Shown here in pieces: positions 10,627-16,187 of a DNA stretch of 28,391 nucleotides. The notes below the pieces were generated by a model, which had not been told where the DNA came from, searched no databases, and saw only the letters and a list, made by a program, of their open reading frames with translations. Source of the stretch: an uncultured bacterium (lineage in GTDB: Bacteria > CAIJMQ01); contig CAIJMQ010000111.1 in NCBI GenBank assembly GCA_903821905.1, positions 1-28,391 on the forward strand, in the 5' to 3' direction. Each line of letters opens with the position of its first letter. The first letter of the stretch is position 1. The translations under genes were made by a program, and so were the position numbers.

Positions 10627-10659
10627 ACTCTGTTGCCAATTCATAGTTGGGGGAATATA

Positions 10660-10782
10660 ATGAATTTTAGTAGAAGCGGATTATTGGAAGAGTTGACATC
10701 ATTTAGCATTAAAATACTAATTAAGAGAATCGGTTTACTTTTTAAGGAGTTAGAGCAATGTCACGAGAAGAAACAAAGTTGA
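10660..10782 (+). CDS. possible 40-codon leader ORF overlapping the SIR2-STAND start
   Basis: An ATG at 10660, with the purine-rich GGGGGA about 5 bases upstream, opens a 40-residue frame beginning MNFSRSGLLEEL and ending CHEKKQS. It overlaps the start of the downstream SIR2-STAND gene by 25 bases in another frame. The predicted peptide is amphipathic and matches no family I recognise. It could be a translated leader that couples or tunes expression of the big gene, or a chance frame. A second promoter-like element lies inside it, which argues slightly against it. Low confidence. Confidence 0.25.
   Translation: MNFSRSGLLEELTSFSIKILIKRIGLLFKELEQCHEKKQS
10693..10720 (+). promoter_or_regulatory. 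promoter-like element before the SIR2-STAND gene
   Basis: A perfect -35, TTGACA (10693-10698), is followed after 16 bases by TACTAA (10715-10720), a poor -10. It would start transcription near 10727, about 30 bases before the gene, leaving room for the AAGGAG ribosome site at 10744-10749. It suggests the gene is transcribed independently of pit. Confidence 0.4.
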
Positions 10783-13700
10783 AAGCGATTGAATTAATTT
10801 GTGGAAAACTTTTAGAAAGGAATGCTGTATTATTTTTGGGTGCAGGTATAAATGCTGGGATTAAAAATAATAAGCATGAAAATGCTCCTCTTGGACAAGA
10901 ACTTAGTAATTGGATTGCGAAAGATTTATTGGGAAGTAATTCTCTGAATGTTACTTTAGATGAAGCAGCAGAAATGGCACGTCATCGAGTTGGAGAAGAG
11001 GAATTAAACAGATATTTATTCCAATTGTTTAACTCTTTCAAACCTGGAACAGCGCATTTAACTCTAGTACAGTTGCCATGGGATATTATATATACGACAA
11101 ACTTTGATTTACTAGTTGAAGAGGCATCAAAAAATAAATCAATTACTTCTGCTGGCACTATTCGATCAATATTCTCTAATAGCACCATCCTTTCGCCTTT
11201 TAGCGAAAACGATATACTTTATTATAAATTACATGGAAGTATCGATTATGCAAACAACGATGGCAAGTTAATTCTTACGAAAGAAGACTATAGACACTAT
11301 ACGATATATAGAAAACCTTTGTTCAAAAGACTTGAGCGAGATCTTTTGAACCGAACTTTTGTATTTGTGGGGTATGCATTAAAAGACCCAAATTTTAGGG
11401 AAATTTTAGAAGATTGTAGAGAAATTCTTGGAATGAAAACCTTCCCTATTAGTTTTGCAATAAAAGATAACTTCGAAGATGTCGAAGCGACTTTTTGGAA
11501 AGACAAATATAATGTTCAGTTGATAGAGGCAGATGCGAGCGAGTTTCTCCAGCTTCTCAAGAAAACTTGGACTGAACAAAATTTACAAGTTATTCCATTT
11601 GACACGCGTAAAGAAAGGAAATATATGCAGATTGGTCATGGCACAAGATTTCCCAAAGTTGGAGAATCGTTTTACCGTATTGATACCCATGTAACTACAG
11701 AGAAAAGTGATCCGAGCTTATTTTTTCGCGGAGCTGAGCCAAGTTGGGGTGATATCTTTGAAAAAATTGCTCCTGAACGAGATAGATATTGGACACTCTT
11801 TGAAACGATTTTTCCAGAATTGTCTACCCCTGCCAACACCCCCAGTGTTTATATTATTACTGGTGCAGCTGGAACAGGAAAAACTACTCTTATTTACTCC
11901 TTAGGATACGATATAGCAAAAGGATTTGAATTGCCCGTTCTTGTTCATATTCCCAGTACTCCTTTAGATATAAATTTAATAAGTCCACTCATAGACCAAA
12001 AGAATCCCAAAAGAATAATAATTTTAATAAAACATGCAGCAGAATGCATATCTTATATAGAAAATTTCCTTGTTGAGGCAAAACAGAAAGCTTTACCAGT
12101 AACTTTGATTCTAGAAGAACGTAAAAATCAATGGGAGTCAGCAATAGCAACTACAAAACGTCATCTTTCTCCACCGGAATTTGAATTAAGTACGCTTTCT
12201 ACTCAAGAGATTGAAAAAATATTAGATGCTTTAAGTAAATATAATATGTTAGGAAAGTTAACTGGATGTGAAAGAGAATATCAAACGAGACATTTTGTTG
12301 CTCTCGCAGATAAAGAATTACTTGTTGCACTTAGAGAGCTTACGAGCGATGGGAAATTTGACGATATAGTTCGCGATGAATTTAATAAAATTCCATCAGA
12401 TATTGCAAAAAAAGTTTATCTTTATGTCTCTGCCCTTAGTCAAATTGATCTGCCAATTCGTTATGAGACGATTATTCGTATTCTTCATTTAAAGATTGAA
12501 CAGCTTAAAGAAGTATTTTTAACAACAAAAGGAGTTTTGATTTCTGGAGAAGAAATGGGTACTTCCCGACATAATTCTGGATTTAGACTATCAACTAGGC
12601 ATCCAATTATTGCCTCAATAATTTTTTCGTCAGAGGCTTCCGATGATGATTCAAAGTTTAAGATTTTTAATGATATTATTTCAACTTTAGATCCGGGGTA
12701 CAATGAAGATAGAAGATTACTTCAGGAGATTACACGAAATAGGCAGTTGGTAGGGGTTTTTGTTTCTCCTGAAAAAAGGCGTGCTATATATGAACGACTC
12801 GAATCGGTTCTTCCGGATAACCCTTATGTACTTCAACACCGATCTCTTTTAGAAAAAGATCTTGATAGTCCAAAGCTTGCTGTGGAGTATGCCCGTAAGG
12901 CTGTAGCTTTAGATACCCAAAATATAGCGTTACTAAATACACTCGGAATAGTTTTAGAATATGCAGCAAGAGATACTACAGACCCGCTAAAATATAAATC
13001 TTTAGTTACAGAAGCTTCAGATATATTTGAGATTGGTATTAAAGCTGATCCTGCGGATCCATATGGTTATATTGGAAAAGTATTGATTTTAAGACAACAA
13101 ATTTTTAAACAAGCCAATGAGGAACAAAAAGCAATATTGCAAGCAACTGCTCTTTCTTTTCTTGAAGAAGCTTACGAAAAAACTCAAAAATCTACAATAA
13201 TAGCTGGAGAATTAGCTGTGCAACGAGATCAACTTGGGGATCCAAAGAATGCGATTCAAATACTAAAAATTGCCATAAATAAACGCCCAGATGATGAACG
13301 ATTGCGAGACATTTTAATTCGGCTCGAATTAAAAAATGATTCTCCATCTGCAATTAGAACTGCTGAAGATGGCGTAAAGTTAATGCCTACTTCTTGGAGA
13401 ATGCAGCTTCATGTAGCTCGTATAAAACGTAAGGCAGGAAAACCTCTCGATAGTGTGAAAGGTCATTATGAGGCAGCTATCCGAAACCATAGGGGTGATA
13501 TAGATATAATGGTTGAATTAGCAGCTTATCTTTTTATGAATGGAAAGAAACCCGAAGCGAATACAATATTTAATGATACTCGTCAGTTACCCATAGCTAG
13601 TTATGAAAAACAAAAACCCCGTCAGTCTTGGAGAAATGATAAACATCAAAATATTTTATTTTCAGGACAGATAAAAAGAATAGTTGGCGCAAGTGCACAT

Positions 13701-13838
13701 GTAATAGCAATTCCTCAGAATTTTGAAGCGTTTTTCTATAGAACATCAGATGCCTTGGCAAAACTAAAAGAACGAGATAGTGTTAAGTTTTATGTGAGCT
13801 TTAATGCTTATGGTCCAGTGGCAAAGATTATTAACTAG
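10758..13838 (+). CDS. SIR2-STAND NTPase-TPR-cold-shock-like protein, candidate antiphage defence gene
   Basis: The product is a 1026-residue multidomain protein. Residues about 15-275 are a SIR2-like NAD-binding domain: FLGAGINAG at 26-34, YTTNFDLL with Asn115, KLHGS with His159, and GYALKDPNF at 205-213. Residues about 325-640 are a STAND-type NTPase with Walker A GAAGTGKTT at 369-377. The strand expected to end in Walker B acidic residues reads RIIILIKHAAE, with no Asp. ILEERKNQW near 451-459 looks like the sensor strand. Residues about 670-940 are helical TPR-like repeats. Residues about 966-1026 resemble a cold-shock OB fold (FSGQIKRIV, EAFFYRTSD, VSFNAYGPVA). SIR2-STAND-TPR is the layout of Avs5-type defence proteins, in which target sensing by the repeats triggers NAD+ destruction. 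The ribosome site AAGGAG is 8 bases upstream. The gene looks more AT-rich than its neighbours. The defence role is inference. Confidence 0.85.
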   Translation: MSREETKLKAIELICGKLLERNAVLFLGAGINAGIKNNKHENAPLGQELSNWIAKDLLGSNSLNVTLDEAAEMARHRVGEEELNRYLFQLFNSFKPGTAHLTLVQLPWDIIYTTNFDLLVEEASKNKSITSAGTIRSIFSNSTILSPFSENDILYYKLHGSIDYANNDGKLILTKEDYRHYTIYRKPLFKRLERDLLNRTFVFVGYALKDPNFREILEDCREILGMKTFPISFAIKDNFEDVEATFWKDKYNVQLIEADASEFLQLLKKTWTEQNLQVIPFDTRKERKYMQIGHGTRFPKVGESFYRIDTHVTTEKSDPSLFFRGAEPSWGDIFEKIAPERDRYWTLFETIFPELSTPANTPSVYIITGAAGTGKTTLIYSLGYDIAKGFELPVLVHIPSTPLDINLISPLIDQKNPKRIIILIKHAAECISYIENFLVEAKQKALPVTLILEERKNQWESAIATTKRHLSPPEFELSTLSTQEIEKILDALSKYNMLGKLTGCEREYQTRHFVALADKELLVALRELTSDGKFDDIVRDEFNKIPSDIAKKVYLYVSALSQIDLPIRYETIIRILHLKIEQLKEVFLTTKGVLISGEEMGTSRHNSGFRLSTRHPIIASIIFSSEASDDDSKFKIFNDIISTLDPGYNEDRRLLQEITRNRQLVGVFVSPEKRRAIYERLESVLPDNPYVLQHRSLLEKDLDSPKLAVEYARKAVALDTQNIALLNTLGIVLEYAARDTTDPLKYKSLVTEASDIFEIGIKADPADPYGYIGKVLILRQQIFKQANEEQKAILQATALSFLEEAYEKTQKSTIIAGELAVQRDQLGDPKNAIQILKIAINKRPDDERLRDILIRLELKNDSPSAIRTAEDGVKLMPTSWRMQLHVARIKRKAGKPLDSVKGHYEAAIRNHRGDIDIMVELAAYLFMNGKKPEANTIFNDTRQLPIASYEKQKPRQSWRNDKHQNILFSGQIKRIVGASAHVIAIPQNFEAFFYRTSDALAKLKERDSVKFYVSFNAYGPVAKIIN

Positions 13839-13845
13839 AAAAGGT

Positions 13846-13891
13846 AGGGGCACAGATCATTGCGATTGTAGTGTCTGAACTTGCCCTTTTT
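13846..13891 (+). terminator. probable bidirectional terminator after the SIR2-STAND gene
   Basis: AGGGGCA (13846-13852) pairs with TGCCCTT (13882-13888) with one wobble, and a T-run follows on the + strand. On the - strand the same hairpin is followed by CCTTTTCT, so it could also end the transcript arriving from the kdp side. The loop is about 29 bases and contains a further CAGA/TCTG pairing. The convergent arrangement of the two flanking genes fits. Confidence 0.5.
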
Positions 13892-13924: not shown

Positions 13925-14017
13925 TCTATCCTATCCTGAAAAATTCACCGATTCTCTTTGACACGATTTTGGAAGCAATTGCAAAAGATATTCCCGATAA
14001 GGTCATCGGTTATTCTT
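13925..14017 (-). pseudogene. broken second copy of the ABC permease 3' end
   Basis: Bases 13925-13994 match 20950-21019 at 68 of 70 positions, with no gap. After a skipped block the match resumes: 13997-14017 against 21059-21080, with one mismatch and one missing base. The missing block of about 38 bases lies between two ATAAG repeats in the intact copy, so it looks like slippage deletion. Read on the - strand, the fragment encodes the same last 22 residues as the permease (GISFAIASKIVSKRIGEFF, then RIG) and the same TAG stop. Everything upstream of this tail is absent. The fragment fuses to the 3' end of kdpD, overlaps its stop codon, and lies in the same frame as kdpD after that stop. The two copies are direct repeats 7025 bases apart, flanking kdp. 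Confidence 0.92.
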
Positions 14018-16187
14018 TCGATTCTATTATTTGAATCATTTCAGAGGATAAACTATTCAAACGTTCTACTTCTTTTACGATAGTCTTTATTAACTTTTCG
14101 CGTTTTGGTTTATTATCGGAGTTCTCGGGTTTTAATAAATCCGATGTGGCTTCTGAAATAGCCCGCAGTGGTTCGGGGAGGTCTAAAGAAAACGTGGTTA
14201 ACAGCATATTGCGTAGGCGTTCGCTTCCTATCTTTGCTTCTGCGTCAAGGGTAGCTGCAGCAAGTTGTGCTCCTTCCACAGCCAAAGCCGTCTGGCTGAC
14301 AAACATTTCCAACATATGAAACTGCTCCGGGTCAACAAACTGTTTGTCCTCGCTGGAGAAAATCCCGATTACGCCCACTGTCTTTTCTGTAGCGACAAAA
14401 GGCAAATAAATTCCGCTTGACCCCGGCAAAGTATCGGTATCCTTACCGGCAACTTTTTCATTTTCATATACCCACTGAGCAACTGCAATCTCGTTATCAG
14501 AAAGCTCCTCTTTAGTATATCCCAATCTGGCATTGAGTTTATTGTTGGGGTCCGGAACAAAAACAATAACCTGACACTTAAAAAATTCCTGAATGTGTCG
14601 GATTGCAATCTTAAATAGCTCATCAGGATAAGAACTTTTTGATAAGTCACGGCTTAGAGCATAAAGGATTTGTGTTTTACTTTCCCTGATGCGTGTTGTA
14701 GTGGTTTGGCGGCGGAGCTGACCGGTAAGATTTGCTATAGCTAATCCTACTGTAAGCATTACTGCAAATGTTACCAGATGCTGAACGTCTGCCACCGCAA
14801 AAGTATAATACGGGTGGGTAAAGAAAAAATCAAAAAGCATTACACTAAGGAATGAAGCCATAATTGACATTCCGCGTCCATAACGAAAAGCAACCCACGT
14901 TACTCCGATTAGATAAATCATTGCCAAATTTGCAAGGGCTAAATGCCGGAATAAAAGTGAGTCTATAACGGTGCACAAAATGACTATGGTTATAGTGTTA
15001 AAGAAAAATTTCTTGGGGAAAGGAGCCACATCGGGCGTGGTAACCTTAACAGGTTCTTCCTGGGATTCTCCGCTTAAGAGATACAAATCTATTTCCTTAC
15101 ATTTATGGGCTAATTTGTCTATCACGGAACCAAAAATAAACTCATACCATTTGGGCTTTTCCGGCTTACCTACAATTATTTTCGTAATATTATTTGAGCG
15201 GGCATATGAAATTAAGGTTTCTGCAATATCTTGGCCGCTAAGTGTAACAATTTCGGCGCCCAGCTTTTCAGCAATACGCATCATTTCGGATAATCTGGTC
15301 CTGTCTTTTTTAGCTAACTGCAGAGAAGTTTCTACATGTGCAACACTCCACTTGACCCCCAGGTCCGAAGCTATGCGTTTCCCTGCGTGAATTAAACGAA
15401 CGGAATTTGGGCTTTCGCTTATGCAAACCAAAAATTTATCTCTGGCTCCTAATATTTTGAAAGTAGCATGTGTCTGTTTGTAGGAAAGTAATTTTTCATC
15501 TACGTTATGTGCTGTATAACGCAGTGCCAGCTGTCTCAGTGCAATCAAATTCCCGGGTTGGAAGAAATTTTGTTCTGCATGTTTGGCCATTTCTCCAAGA
15601 TAAACTTTGCCTTCTTTAAGACGTTTCAGGAGAGTTTCTGTTGGAAGGTCAACGAGTTCTATCTCGTCTGCTTTTTCAACAAGGGTATCAGGTACTGTTT
15701 CGCGGACGATTATCCCGGTAACTTGTGCTACTACATCGGTTGCGCTTTCACAATGCTGGACATTGAGAGTTGTATAAACATCGATACCTTTATCCAGAAG
15801 CTCTTCTACATCCTGCCATCTCTTCGGATGACGTGAGCCGGGTGCATTTGTATGTGCTAATTCATCAACCAGAATCAGTGTCGGTTTTTTATTCAATGCG
15901 GCATCAATATCAAATTCGCTAAGTTCTATATTTTTATATTTAATAATCTTAGGGGGAAGAATTGGAAGCCCTTCTAAGAGCGCTTCCGTTTCCACACGTT
16001 TGTGAGTTTCGACCCAGCCGATAATGACATCAATGCCTTCTTTTTTCTGCAGTCTTGCGGATTCAAGCATTGCATAGGTTTTGCCAACGCCTGCGGCTGC
16101 GCCAAAGAAAATCTTAAGTTTGCCACGGTGTGATTCTTGTGCTTTAGCGTTTGCTAAAATCTGTTCTATATCTGATTTCTCTTCCAT
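14010..16187 (-). CDS. kdpD: KdpD sensor, truncated and lacking kinase activity sites
   Basis: This 725-residue K+ sensor is about 170 residues shorter than E. coli KdpD (894). The N-terminal KdpD domain is intact (GAAAGVGKT at 29-37; VDELAHTNAPGSRHPKRWQD near 110-130). It is followed by a USP domain (about 250-375), the four-helix DUF4118 membrane region (about 390-490) and a GAF domain (about 510-640). The last 70 residues match a HisKA dimerisation domain, but the H-box reads FSLDLPEPL where SHDLRTPL is expected, so the phospho-acceptor His is Leu668. The protein ends SEMIQIIESKE, exactly where the HATPase domain should begin. No kdpE is seen. The UAA stop comes from adjoining permease-tail DNA. 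It may act as a ligand-binding or scaffolding protein rather than a kinase. The start is 17 bases after kdpC. Confidence 0.93.
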   Translation of the reverse strand: MEEKSDIEQILANAKAQESHRGKLKIFFGAAAGVGKTYAMLESARLQKKEGIDVIIGWVETHKRVETEALLEGLPILPPKIIKYKNIELSEFDIDAALNKKPTLILVDELAHTNAPGSRHPKRWQDVEELLDKGIDVYTTLNVQHCESATDVVAQVTGIIVRETVPDTLVEKADEIELVDLPTETLLKRLKEGKVYLGEMAKHAEQNFFQPGNLIALRQLALRYTAHNVDEKLLSYKQTHATFKILGARDKFLVCISESPNSVRLIHAGKRIASDLGVKWSVAHVETSLQLAKKDRTRLSEMMRIAEKLGAEIVTLSGQDIAETLISYARSNNITKIIVGKPEKPKWYEFIFGSVIDKLAHKCKEIDLYLLSGESQEEPVKVTTPDVAPFPKKFFFNTITIVILCTVIDSLLFRHLALANLAMIYLIGVTWVAFRYGRGMSIMASFLSVMLFDFFFTHPYYTFAVADVQHLVTFAVMLTVGLAIANLTGQLRRQTTTTRIRESKTQILYALSRDLSKSSYPDELFKIAIRHIQEFFKCQVIVFVPDPNNKLNARLGYTKEELSDNEIAVAQWVYENEKVAGKDTDTLPGSSGIYLPFVATEKTVGVIGIFSSEDKQFVDPEQFHMLEMFVSQTALAVEGAQLAAATLDAEAKIGSERLRNMLLTTFSLDLPEPLRAISEATSDLLKPENSDNKPKREKLIKTIVKEVERLNSLSSEMIQIIESKE

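What the first reader, a model, noticed from the sequence alone, without database searches (positions are those of the whole stretch)
10758..13838. SIR2-STAND-TPR protein with a C-terminal cold-shock-like domain: candidate new antiphage system variant
A single large gene with its own promoter-like element and terminator sits between two transport blocks. The SIR2 residues (Asn115, His159) and Walker A are intact, and TPR-like repeats follow, as in Avs5-type defence proteins. The last 60 residues look like a cold-shock OB fold, with strand pattern GQIKRIV, EAFFYRTSD, VSFNAYGPVA but a degraded RNP1 motif. That would add a nucleic-acid or protein sensing module that I do not know from described Avs proteins. 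The defence role and the CSD assignment are inferences.
Basis: partly seen in the sequence, partly recalled or inferred. Interest (0 to 1): 0.8.

Follow-up and report, generated by a model that had tools for sequence, protein, structure and literature searches.

The report
SIR2-STAND-TPR defence protein with cold-shock domain
This gene encodes a bacterial immune-receptor-like protein that probably destroys the cell's NAD+ when it senses a phage, and it belongs to a horizontally spread family whose members nearly all end in a cold-shock (nucleic-acid-binding-type) domain, the same domain order as the core of the human antiviral protein SAMD9.

Summary
ORF 10758-13838 (+, 1026 aa) is intact and is predicted to fold as SIR2, STAND NTPase with winged helix, a TPR superhelix and a five-stranded cold-shock OB domain. 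The cold-shock domain (CSD) is not a one-off: about 30 full-length relatives from several phyla, plasmids and proviruses end in it. Pfam CSD matches 21 of 27 of these C-termini, though not the window's own; their joint profile hits Unr and CspA in the PDB (E 1e-12, 1e-9). SIR2 Asn/His and the Walker A lysine are invariant in 22 of 22. One relative lies between psu and int of a P4-like satellite, a published defence hotspot; others adjoin restriction systems. PADLOC models essentially only the SIR2 part. The STAND domain is related to Avs5 (E 6e-11), but the Avs5 model does not fit. The domain order matches the SAMD9 core, yet SAMD9's Walker A change is absent. Best reading: a new variant of Avs5-like NADase abortive-infection proteins. 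In the window's copy the RNP1 stacking aromatics are lost, so its CSD may no longer bind RNA or DNA. Defence activity is inferred, not shown.

The parts
10633..10661 (+). promoter-like element TTGCCA-17-TATAAT (weak evidence)
   Evidence: 11 of 12 consensus positions; total number of sites not above chance
10744..10749 (+). Shine-Dalgarno AAGGAG, 8 nt before ATG
   Evidence: read
10758..13838 (+). SIR2-STAND-TPR-CSD gene, 1026 aa
10758..11573 (+). SIR2 NADase-type domain, residues 1-272; Asn115 at 11100-11102, His159 at 11232-11234
   Evidence: SIR2_2 E 2e-23; alignment to ThsA; VIA Z 26.9 to BcThsA, rmsd 2.8 over 257; Asn and His invariant in 22/22
11703..12188 (+). STAND P-loop NTPase (nSTAND_NTPase5), residues 316-477; Walker A 11862-11885
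   Evidence: E 1e-21; Lys375 invariant; EfAvs5 STAND E 6e-11
12189..12632 (+). helical and winged-helix (ARC/WHD-like) region, residues 478-625, with invariant Arg614-His615
   Evidence: best conserved part of the family
12633..13592 (+). TPR superhelix, residues 626-945
   Evidence: TPR families; continuous helical hairpins with pLDDT about 90
13638..13835 (+). cold-shock OB-fold domain, residues 961-1026, RNP1 aromatics lost
13846..13888 (+). terminator-like hairpin that runs into TTTTT
   Evidence: -20.5 kcal/mol, z -3.07

Best explanation
A single-gene, NLR-like antiphage receptor. The TPR superhelix is the likely sensor of a phage product. Sensing releases the STAND module to bind ATP and oligomerise, which brings the N-terminal SIR2 domains together (filament or tetramer, as in Avs5, ThsA and DSR2); they then hydrolyse NAD+ and the cell stops growing or dies before phage release. 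The conserved C-terminal cold-shock domain follows the TPR superhelix as a cap. In most members it keeps aromatic RNP1/RNP2 positions and probably binds single-stranded RNA or DNA as a co-sensor or a tether; in the window protein it has lost both RNP1 aromatics and is more likely a structural or protein-binding cap. Shown here by computation: the four domains, invariant catalytic and Walker A residues, conservation of the CSD across phyla, mobile and defence contexts of relatives. Inferred: phage defence, NAD+ hydrolysis, the trigger, oligomerisation, and nucleic-acid binding.
For: SIR2 Asn115 and His159 invariant in 22/22 and aligned to ThsA; VIA Z 23-27 to ThsA, KomC and DSR2 SIR2 domains. 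STAND profile to EfAvs5 E 6e-11; Foldseek full-length top hit EfAvs5 E 1e-24, then SAMD9 and DSR2. CSD: 21/27 members hit Pfam CSD (best 1.9e-11), profile to Unr 1e-12 and CspA 1e-9, CTD model pLDDT 94.5, VIA Z 9.2 to YB-1 and 8.2 to CspA. Aromatic at the first RNP1 site in 26/31, Phe at the second in 27/31, Phe/Tyr at RNP2 in 28/31. Context: E. coli relative between psu and integrase of a P4-like satellite, type I RM beside the Psychrobacter plasmid copy, type IIG RM beside L052 and L063, an HmaB-like methylase beside L046, nine relatives in IMG/VR contigs, 9 integrases and 4 resolvases among 150 neighbours against at most 1 of each among 128 recA-neighbourhood controls. Patchy: one full-length homologue besides the window in 386 sampled genomes, none in six same-class genomes. 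Compositional outlier in its contig (GC 0.348).
Against: No activity data. No defence gene adjoins the window's own copy. Walker B acidic residue is Lys425 in the window, so ATP hydrolysis may be impaired. The window's CSD alone does not match Pfam CSD. Type II methylases and other PADLOC hits also occur among controls, the control is a housekeeping locus, and 8 of the 29 neighbourhoods were taken from a viral collection, which favours integrases.
Confidence: 0.72

Rival explanations
1. Prokaryotic branch of the SAMD9 core: the family descends from the same SIR2-STAND-TPR-OB ancestor as animal SAMD9/SAMD9L and keeps an active SIR2 where SAMD9 relies on its added AlbA-type tRNase.
For: Same order of four domains as the published SAMD9 core, whose C-terminal OB is described as most similar to cold-shock proteins and which has bacterial members (PMC5445408). 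Foldseek full-length hits to SAMD9 structures over about 1170 columns at E 1e-22, TMq 0.40-0.41 against 0.29 for EfAvs5; SAMD9 appears among CTD matches at E 0.044.
Against: Walker A keeps Lys in 22/22 whereas SAMD9 family proteins carry GGT/S (PMC5445408). No AlbA domain. SAMD9 is not among the 60 listed sequence-profile matches of the STAND, CSD or full alignments, while EfAvs5 is listed for STAND and full. VIA gives SAMD9 Z 16.9 at rmsd 30 over 636 residues, below Avs5. Avs5 itself resembles SAMD9 (PMC12931631).
Confidence: 0.3
2. The CSD is a protein-protein or structural cap with no nucleic-acid role in the family.
For: Low sequence conservation of the CSD (25% mean pairwise identity, as low as the TPRs); the window and L043 lack RNP1 aromatics, some members have near-neutral or negative CSDs; a sister subfamily has a degenerate OB and another none.
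Against: RNP1 [YF]xF[IV] and RNP2 [IL][FY] positions are kept in about 26-28 of 31 members, which a purely structural role would not obviously require.
Confidence: 0.35
3. A NAD-dependent regulatory or stress protein without antiviral role.
For: The window copy stands alone between ion-transport genes with its own promoter-like element and terminator.
Against: Sporadic distribution, plasmids, P4 satellite hotspot, RM and integrase neighbours of relatives; absence from same-class genomes.
Confidence: 0.1
4. The window copy is a decaying, inactive member.
For: Lys at the Walker B acidic position and lost RNP1 aromatics.
Against: Intact 1026-codon frame, all invariant SIR2 and Walker A residues, and a 47-50% identical relative in a planctomycete that shares the CSD changes, so the CSD changes were fixed in a lineage that kept the gene.
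Confidence: 0.12

Closest known systems
Avs5 (AVAST type 5, SIR2-STAND; EfAvs5 9jap, PaAvs5)
   Same: N-terminal SIR2, homologous STAND domain (E 6e-11), C-terminal helical repeats, single gene; best Foldseek hit
   Different: Avs5 structures align only to model residues 2-828, so a shorter repeat region and no CSD in them; the PADLOC Avs5 model does not fit
SAMD9/SAMD9L family (animals and some bacteria)
   Same: SIR2-like, STAND P-loop, TPR, OB-fold similar to cold-shock proteins, in the same order (PMC5445408)
   Different: SAMD9 has an AlbA-type tRNase domain and SAM or death-fold domains, a variant SIR2 and a Walker A Lys-to-Gly change; this family starts at SIR2 with intact Asn/His and keeps the Lys
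SIR2-STAND-repeat proteins of P4 satellites (Rousset et al. 2022, PMC9122126)
   Same: An E. coli family member lies between psu and int of a P4-like satellite; the paper reports SIR2 versions of STAND-repeat proteins there
   Different: The passages read describe no CSD; whether the paper's proteins are this family was not tested
DSR2 and ThsA (SIR2 NADases of defence)
   Same: SIR2 domain with the same catalytic Asn/His
   Different: Sequence similarity limited to SIR2; ThsA has a SLOG sensor (known)
Cold-shock domains (CspA, Unr/CSDE1, YB-1)
   Same: Fold and RNP1/RNP2 pattern in most members; closest by profile to Unr, which also has a short loop before SYGFI
   Different: Fused to a STAND-TPR NADase-type protein; RNP1 aromatics missing in the window copy

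Membership tests
Avs5 | full-length match to the PADLOC Avs5 model | tested here: not met
   SIR2 residues 98-208 only, E 1.4e-4; none in 8 relatives at E <= 0.001
Avs5 | SIR2 plus Avs5-type STAND domain | tested here: met
   EfAvs5 STAND E 6e-11; VIA Z 20.9, 664 residues aligned (rmsd 26.9, domains differently placed)
Avs5 | defence activity with NAD+ depletion by filaments | not testable with these tools
   needs phage challenge and biochemistry
SAMD9 family | order SIR2, STAND, TPR, OB (cold-shock-like) | tested here: met
   definition from PMC5445408
SAMD9 family | Walker A Lys replaced by Gly (GGT/S) | tested here: not met
   GKT/S in 22/22
SAMD9 family | AlbA_2 domain before SIR2 (lost in some members) | tested here: not met
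   SIR2 fold starts at residue 1-3; no AlbA match
SAMD9 family | specific sequence similarity | tested here: inconclusive
   SAMD9 chains not among the 60 listed profile matches
Cold-shock domain (PF00313) | profile match of the family's C-terminus | tested here: met
   21/27 members, best 1.9e-11; PDB CSDs 1e-12; the window's own copy alone does not match
Cold-shock domain (PF00313) | five-stranded OB fold of CSD type in the window copy | tested here: met
   pLDDT 94.5; Z 9.2 to YB-1, rmsd 1.6 over 65
Cold-shock domain (PF00313) | RNP1 aromatic residues in the window copy | tested here: not met
   ASAHVI in place of [SG][YF]xF[IV]
nSTAND_NTPase5 (PF25199) | score above curated cut-off | tested here: met
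   77.7 bits against 34
DSR2 | NCBIfam full-length match | tested here: not met
   59 bits against cut-off 1400, SIR2 only

The most novel reading that the evidence does not exclude
A widespread, unnamed antiphage receptor family in which a cold-shock domain reads single-stranded RNA or DNA and licenses a STAND-driven SIR2 NADase, and which preserves in bacteria the SIR2-STAND-TPR-OB core from which animal SAMD9 was built.
Probability: 0.25. Interest if true: 0.85.

Novelty: new variant of a known kind. Interest (0 to 1): 0.62.

Why it matters
It defines a cross-phylum SIR2-STAND family that PADLOC-DB 2.0.0 recognises essentially only by its SIR2 domain, gives it a constant C-terminal domain of nucleic-acid-binding type, and places one member in a known satellite defence hotspot of E. 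coli, so activity can be tested at once. Its domain order equals the SAMD9 core, so it offers a tractable bacterial system for the open question of what SAMD9's OB domain and STAND module sense.

Tried and rejected
The window protein alone against viral contigs found no relative; the family alignment did. Phage records hold no full-length relative. Searches for the STAND-TPR-CSD core with another effector found only relatives of the SIR2 proteins on plasmids (some annotated as split or hypothetical genes) and only weak TPR-region hits besides G054 and the window in 386 genomes, so effector swapping of this core was not seen in the samples searched. PF25199 alone rings in nearly all genomes through other P-loop ATPases; only 11 of 386 are above cut-off. 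Looking for genuine Avs5 in 376 genomes to compare found nothing, so no Avs5 sequence was aligned directly apart from the PDB chain. The empty-site comparison failed: kdpD was not found and Pit is only about 30% identical in same-family genomes, so insertion could not be shown or dated, and mis-binning of the contig is not fully excluded (its composition outside this gene resembles other contigs of the genome). VIA on the full model does not list every SIR2-STAND family; absence there is not used as evidence. The careful phylogeny did not finish; the quick tree is used. Papers on EfAvs5 filaments and on NLR-like recognition were not held.

Full report
Observation. The ORF at 10758-13838 (+) is real, intact and 1026 aa long. 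Pfam finds SIR2_2 (110-253, E 2e-23), nSTAND_NTPase5 (322-465, E 1e-21) and TPRs, but no domain over the last 80 residues. Catalytic Asn115 and His159 align with the ThsA NADases. A promoter-like site (11 of 12 bases, though the region has no more sites than shuffles), a Shine-Dalgarno and a downstream hairpin with a T run (z -3.1) suggest a monocistronic gene between the PhoU-like/Pit block and kdpDCB.

The C-terminal domain. tblastn and profile scans gave full-length relatives of about 1030-1060 aa on plasmids (Psychrobacter, Vibrio, Klebsiella, Methylobacterium), in genomes of several phyla, in one E. coli chromosome and in IMG/VR contigs. Those of the close group nearly all end in the same domain of about 65 residues. 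Scanned one by one, 21 of 27 match Pfam CSD, best E 1.9e-11; the window copy does not. Their profile finds Unr (1e-12), CspA (1e-9) and other cold-shock proteins in the PDB. AlphaFold2 gives the window's last 86 residues as five strands at pLDDT 94.5; Foldseek and VIA put cold-shock domains on top (Z 9.2 YB-1, 8.2 CspA). RNP1 reads [SG][YF]xF[IV] in most members, and GFGFV in the E. coli allele, but ASAHVI in the window and AVGHVI in its nearest relative L043.

The rest of the protein. The full model (mean pLDDT 83) has SIR2, STAND with winged helix, a long TPR superhelix and the CSD. Asn115, His159 and Walker A Lys375 are invariant in 22 of 22; the Walker B acidic residue is Lys in the window and Asp or Glu in the other 21. 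Foldseek ranks EfAvs5 first (E 1e-24), then human SAMD9 (E 1e-22, about 1170 columns) and DSR2. By sequence, the STAND profile hits EfAvs5 at 6e-11 and then only generic P-loop proteins from about 1e-4.

Family history. A quick ML tree of the SIR2-STAND part groups 31 CSD members at 99% SH-aLRT, with window and L043 (a planctomycete MAG, 47-50% identity) as a separate deep pair. A subfamily of about 810 aa without the CSD and one with a degenerate OB branch beside them. The CSD label needs three changes on this tree, so one gain with losses is possible but not shown; long branches (L066, L082) make the deep order unsure. Only one full-length homologue besides the window was found in 386 sampled genomes and none in six same-class genomes. 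The gene is the compositional low point of its contig: GC 0.348, tetranucleotide correlation with the rest 0.51 against 0.54-0.87 for segments of the same length that do not overlap it. An 8.2 kb stretch with this kind of gene is 99.9% identical in Parvibaculum and Rhodopseudomonas contigs, beside a TniQ gene: recent transfer or cross-contamination.

Defence context. The E. coli N18-04097 member lies between psu and the integrase of a P4-like satellite, the hotspot in which Rousset et al. 2022 found antiphage systems and noted SIR2 versions of STAND-repeat proteins (PMC9122126). It occurs in one of 5,426 E. coli genomes. The Psychrobacter copy adjoins a type I RM system; L052 and L063 adjoin type IIG RM enzymes, L046 an HmaB-like methylase, and L043 is followed by a gene with a TIR/ThsB-like domain. 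Among 150 neighbours of 29 loci there are 9 integrases and 4 resolvases; among 128 recA neighbours of the same kinds of genomes at most one of each. Caveats: 8 of the 29 loci come from a viral collection, only the top 25 families are listed, and RM genes also appear in the control.

How it most likely works. Known for relatives from the literature: Avs5, ThsA and DSR2 use SIR2 assembly to destroy NAD+ upon sensing phage products. With the same catalytic residues, a homologous STAND module and TPRs, this protein most likely does the same (0.72). The CSD probably adds nucleic-acid contact in most members (about 0.6) but perhaps not in the window protein (about 0.3). Trigger, oligomer and activity are inferred.

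What it is a member of. It belongs to PF25199 and, as a family, to the CSD fold. It is not Avs5 by PADLOC's model, nor DSR2 or ThsA outside SIR2. It has the SAMD9 core order (PMC5445408) but lacks the Walker A Gly and AlbA; affiliation with SAMD9 is open. No paper found in the searched library described a cold-shock domain on an Avs5-like SIR2-STAND protein; the library is incomplete, so priority is not claimed.

Verdict. Real, conserved, horizontally spread, probably antiphage; a new variant of a known kind, with a testable link to SAMD9.

Noticed in passing
L051:6015-14176 and L053:1-8162: Parvibaculum indicum and Rhodopseudomonas sp. AAP120 contigs share 8,162 bp at 99.9% identity including the SIR2-STAND-TPR-CSD gene and a TniQ gene: recent transfer on a Tn7-like element, or cross-contamination of assemblies.
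   Followed up: partly
window 14010-16187 (-): KdpD here has KdpD, DUF4118 and GAF domains but no histidine-kinase domains at E <= 1e-10, and no kdpD was found in six same-class genomes.
   Followed up: partly
L043:13302-16292 (-): Gene beside the closest relative encodes 997 aa with a C-terminal TIR/ThsB-like domain (E 3e-37), possibly another defence protein.
   Followed up: no
L065, L067-L072, L117 and L076, L078-L080, L089, L094: Two sister SIR2-STAND subfamilies: one of about 810 aa without the CSD, one of about 1055 aa with a degenerate OB-like tail (KLHFYLYGVMAEI).
   Followed up: partly
window 12030-12032 (Lys425): Walker B acidic residue replaced by Lys in the window protein while Walker A is intact.
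   Followed up: partly
L009:7986-11120 (CP043374.1): A family member lies on a conjugative plasmid (pKPC2_090249) of Klebsiella pneumoniae about 4 kb from qnrS1, so the family circulates on clinical resistance plasmids.
   Followed up: no
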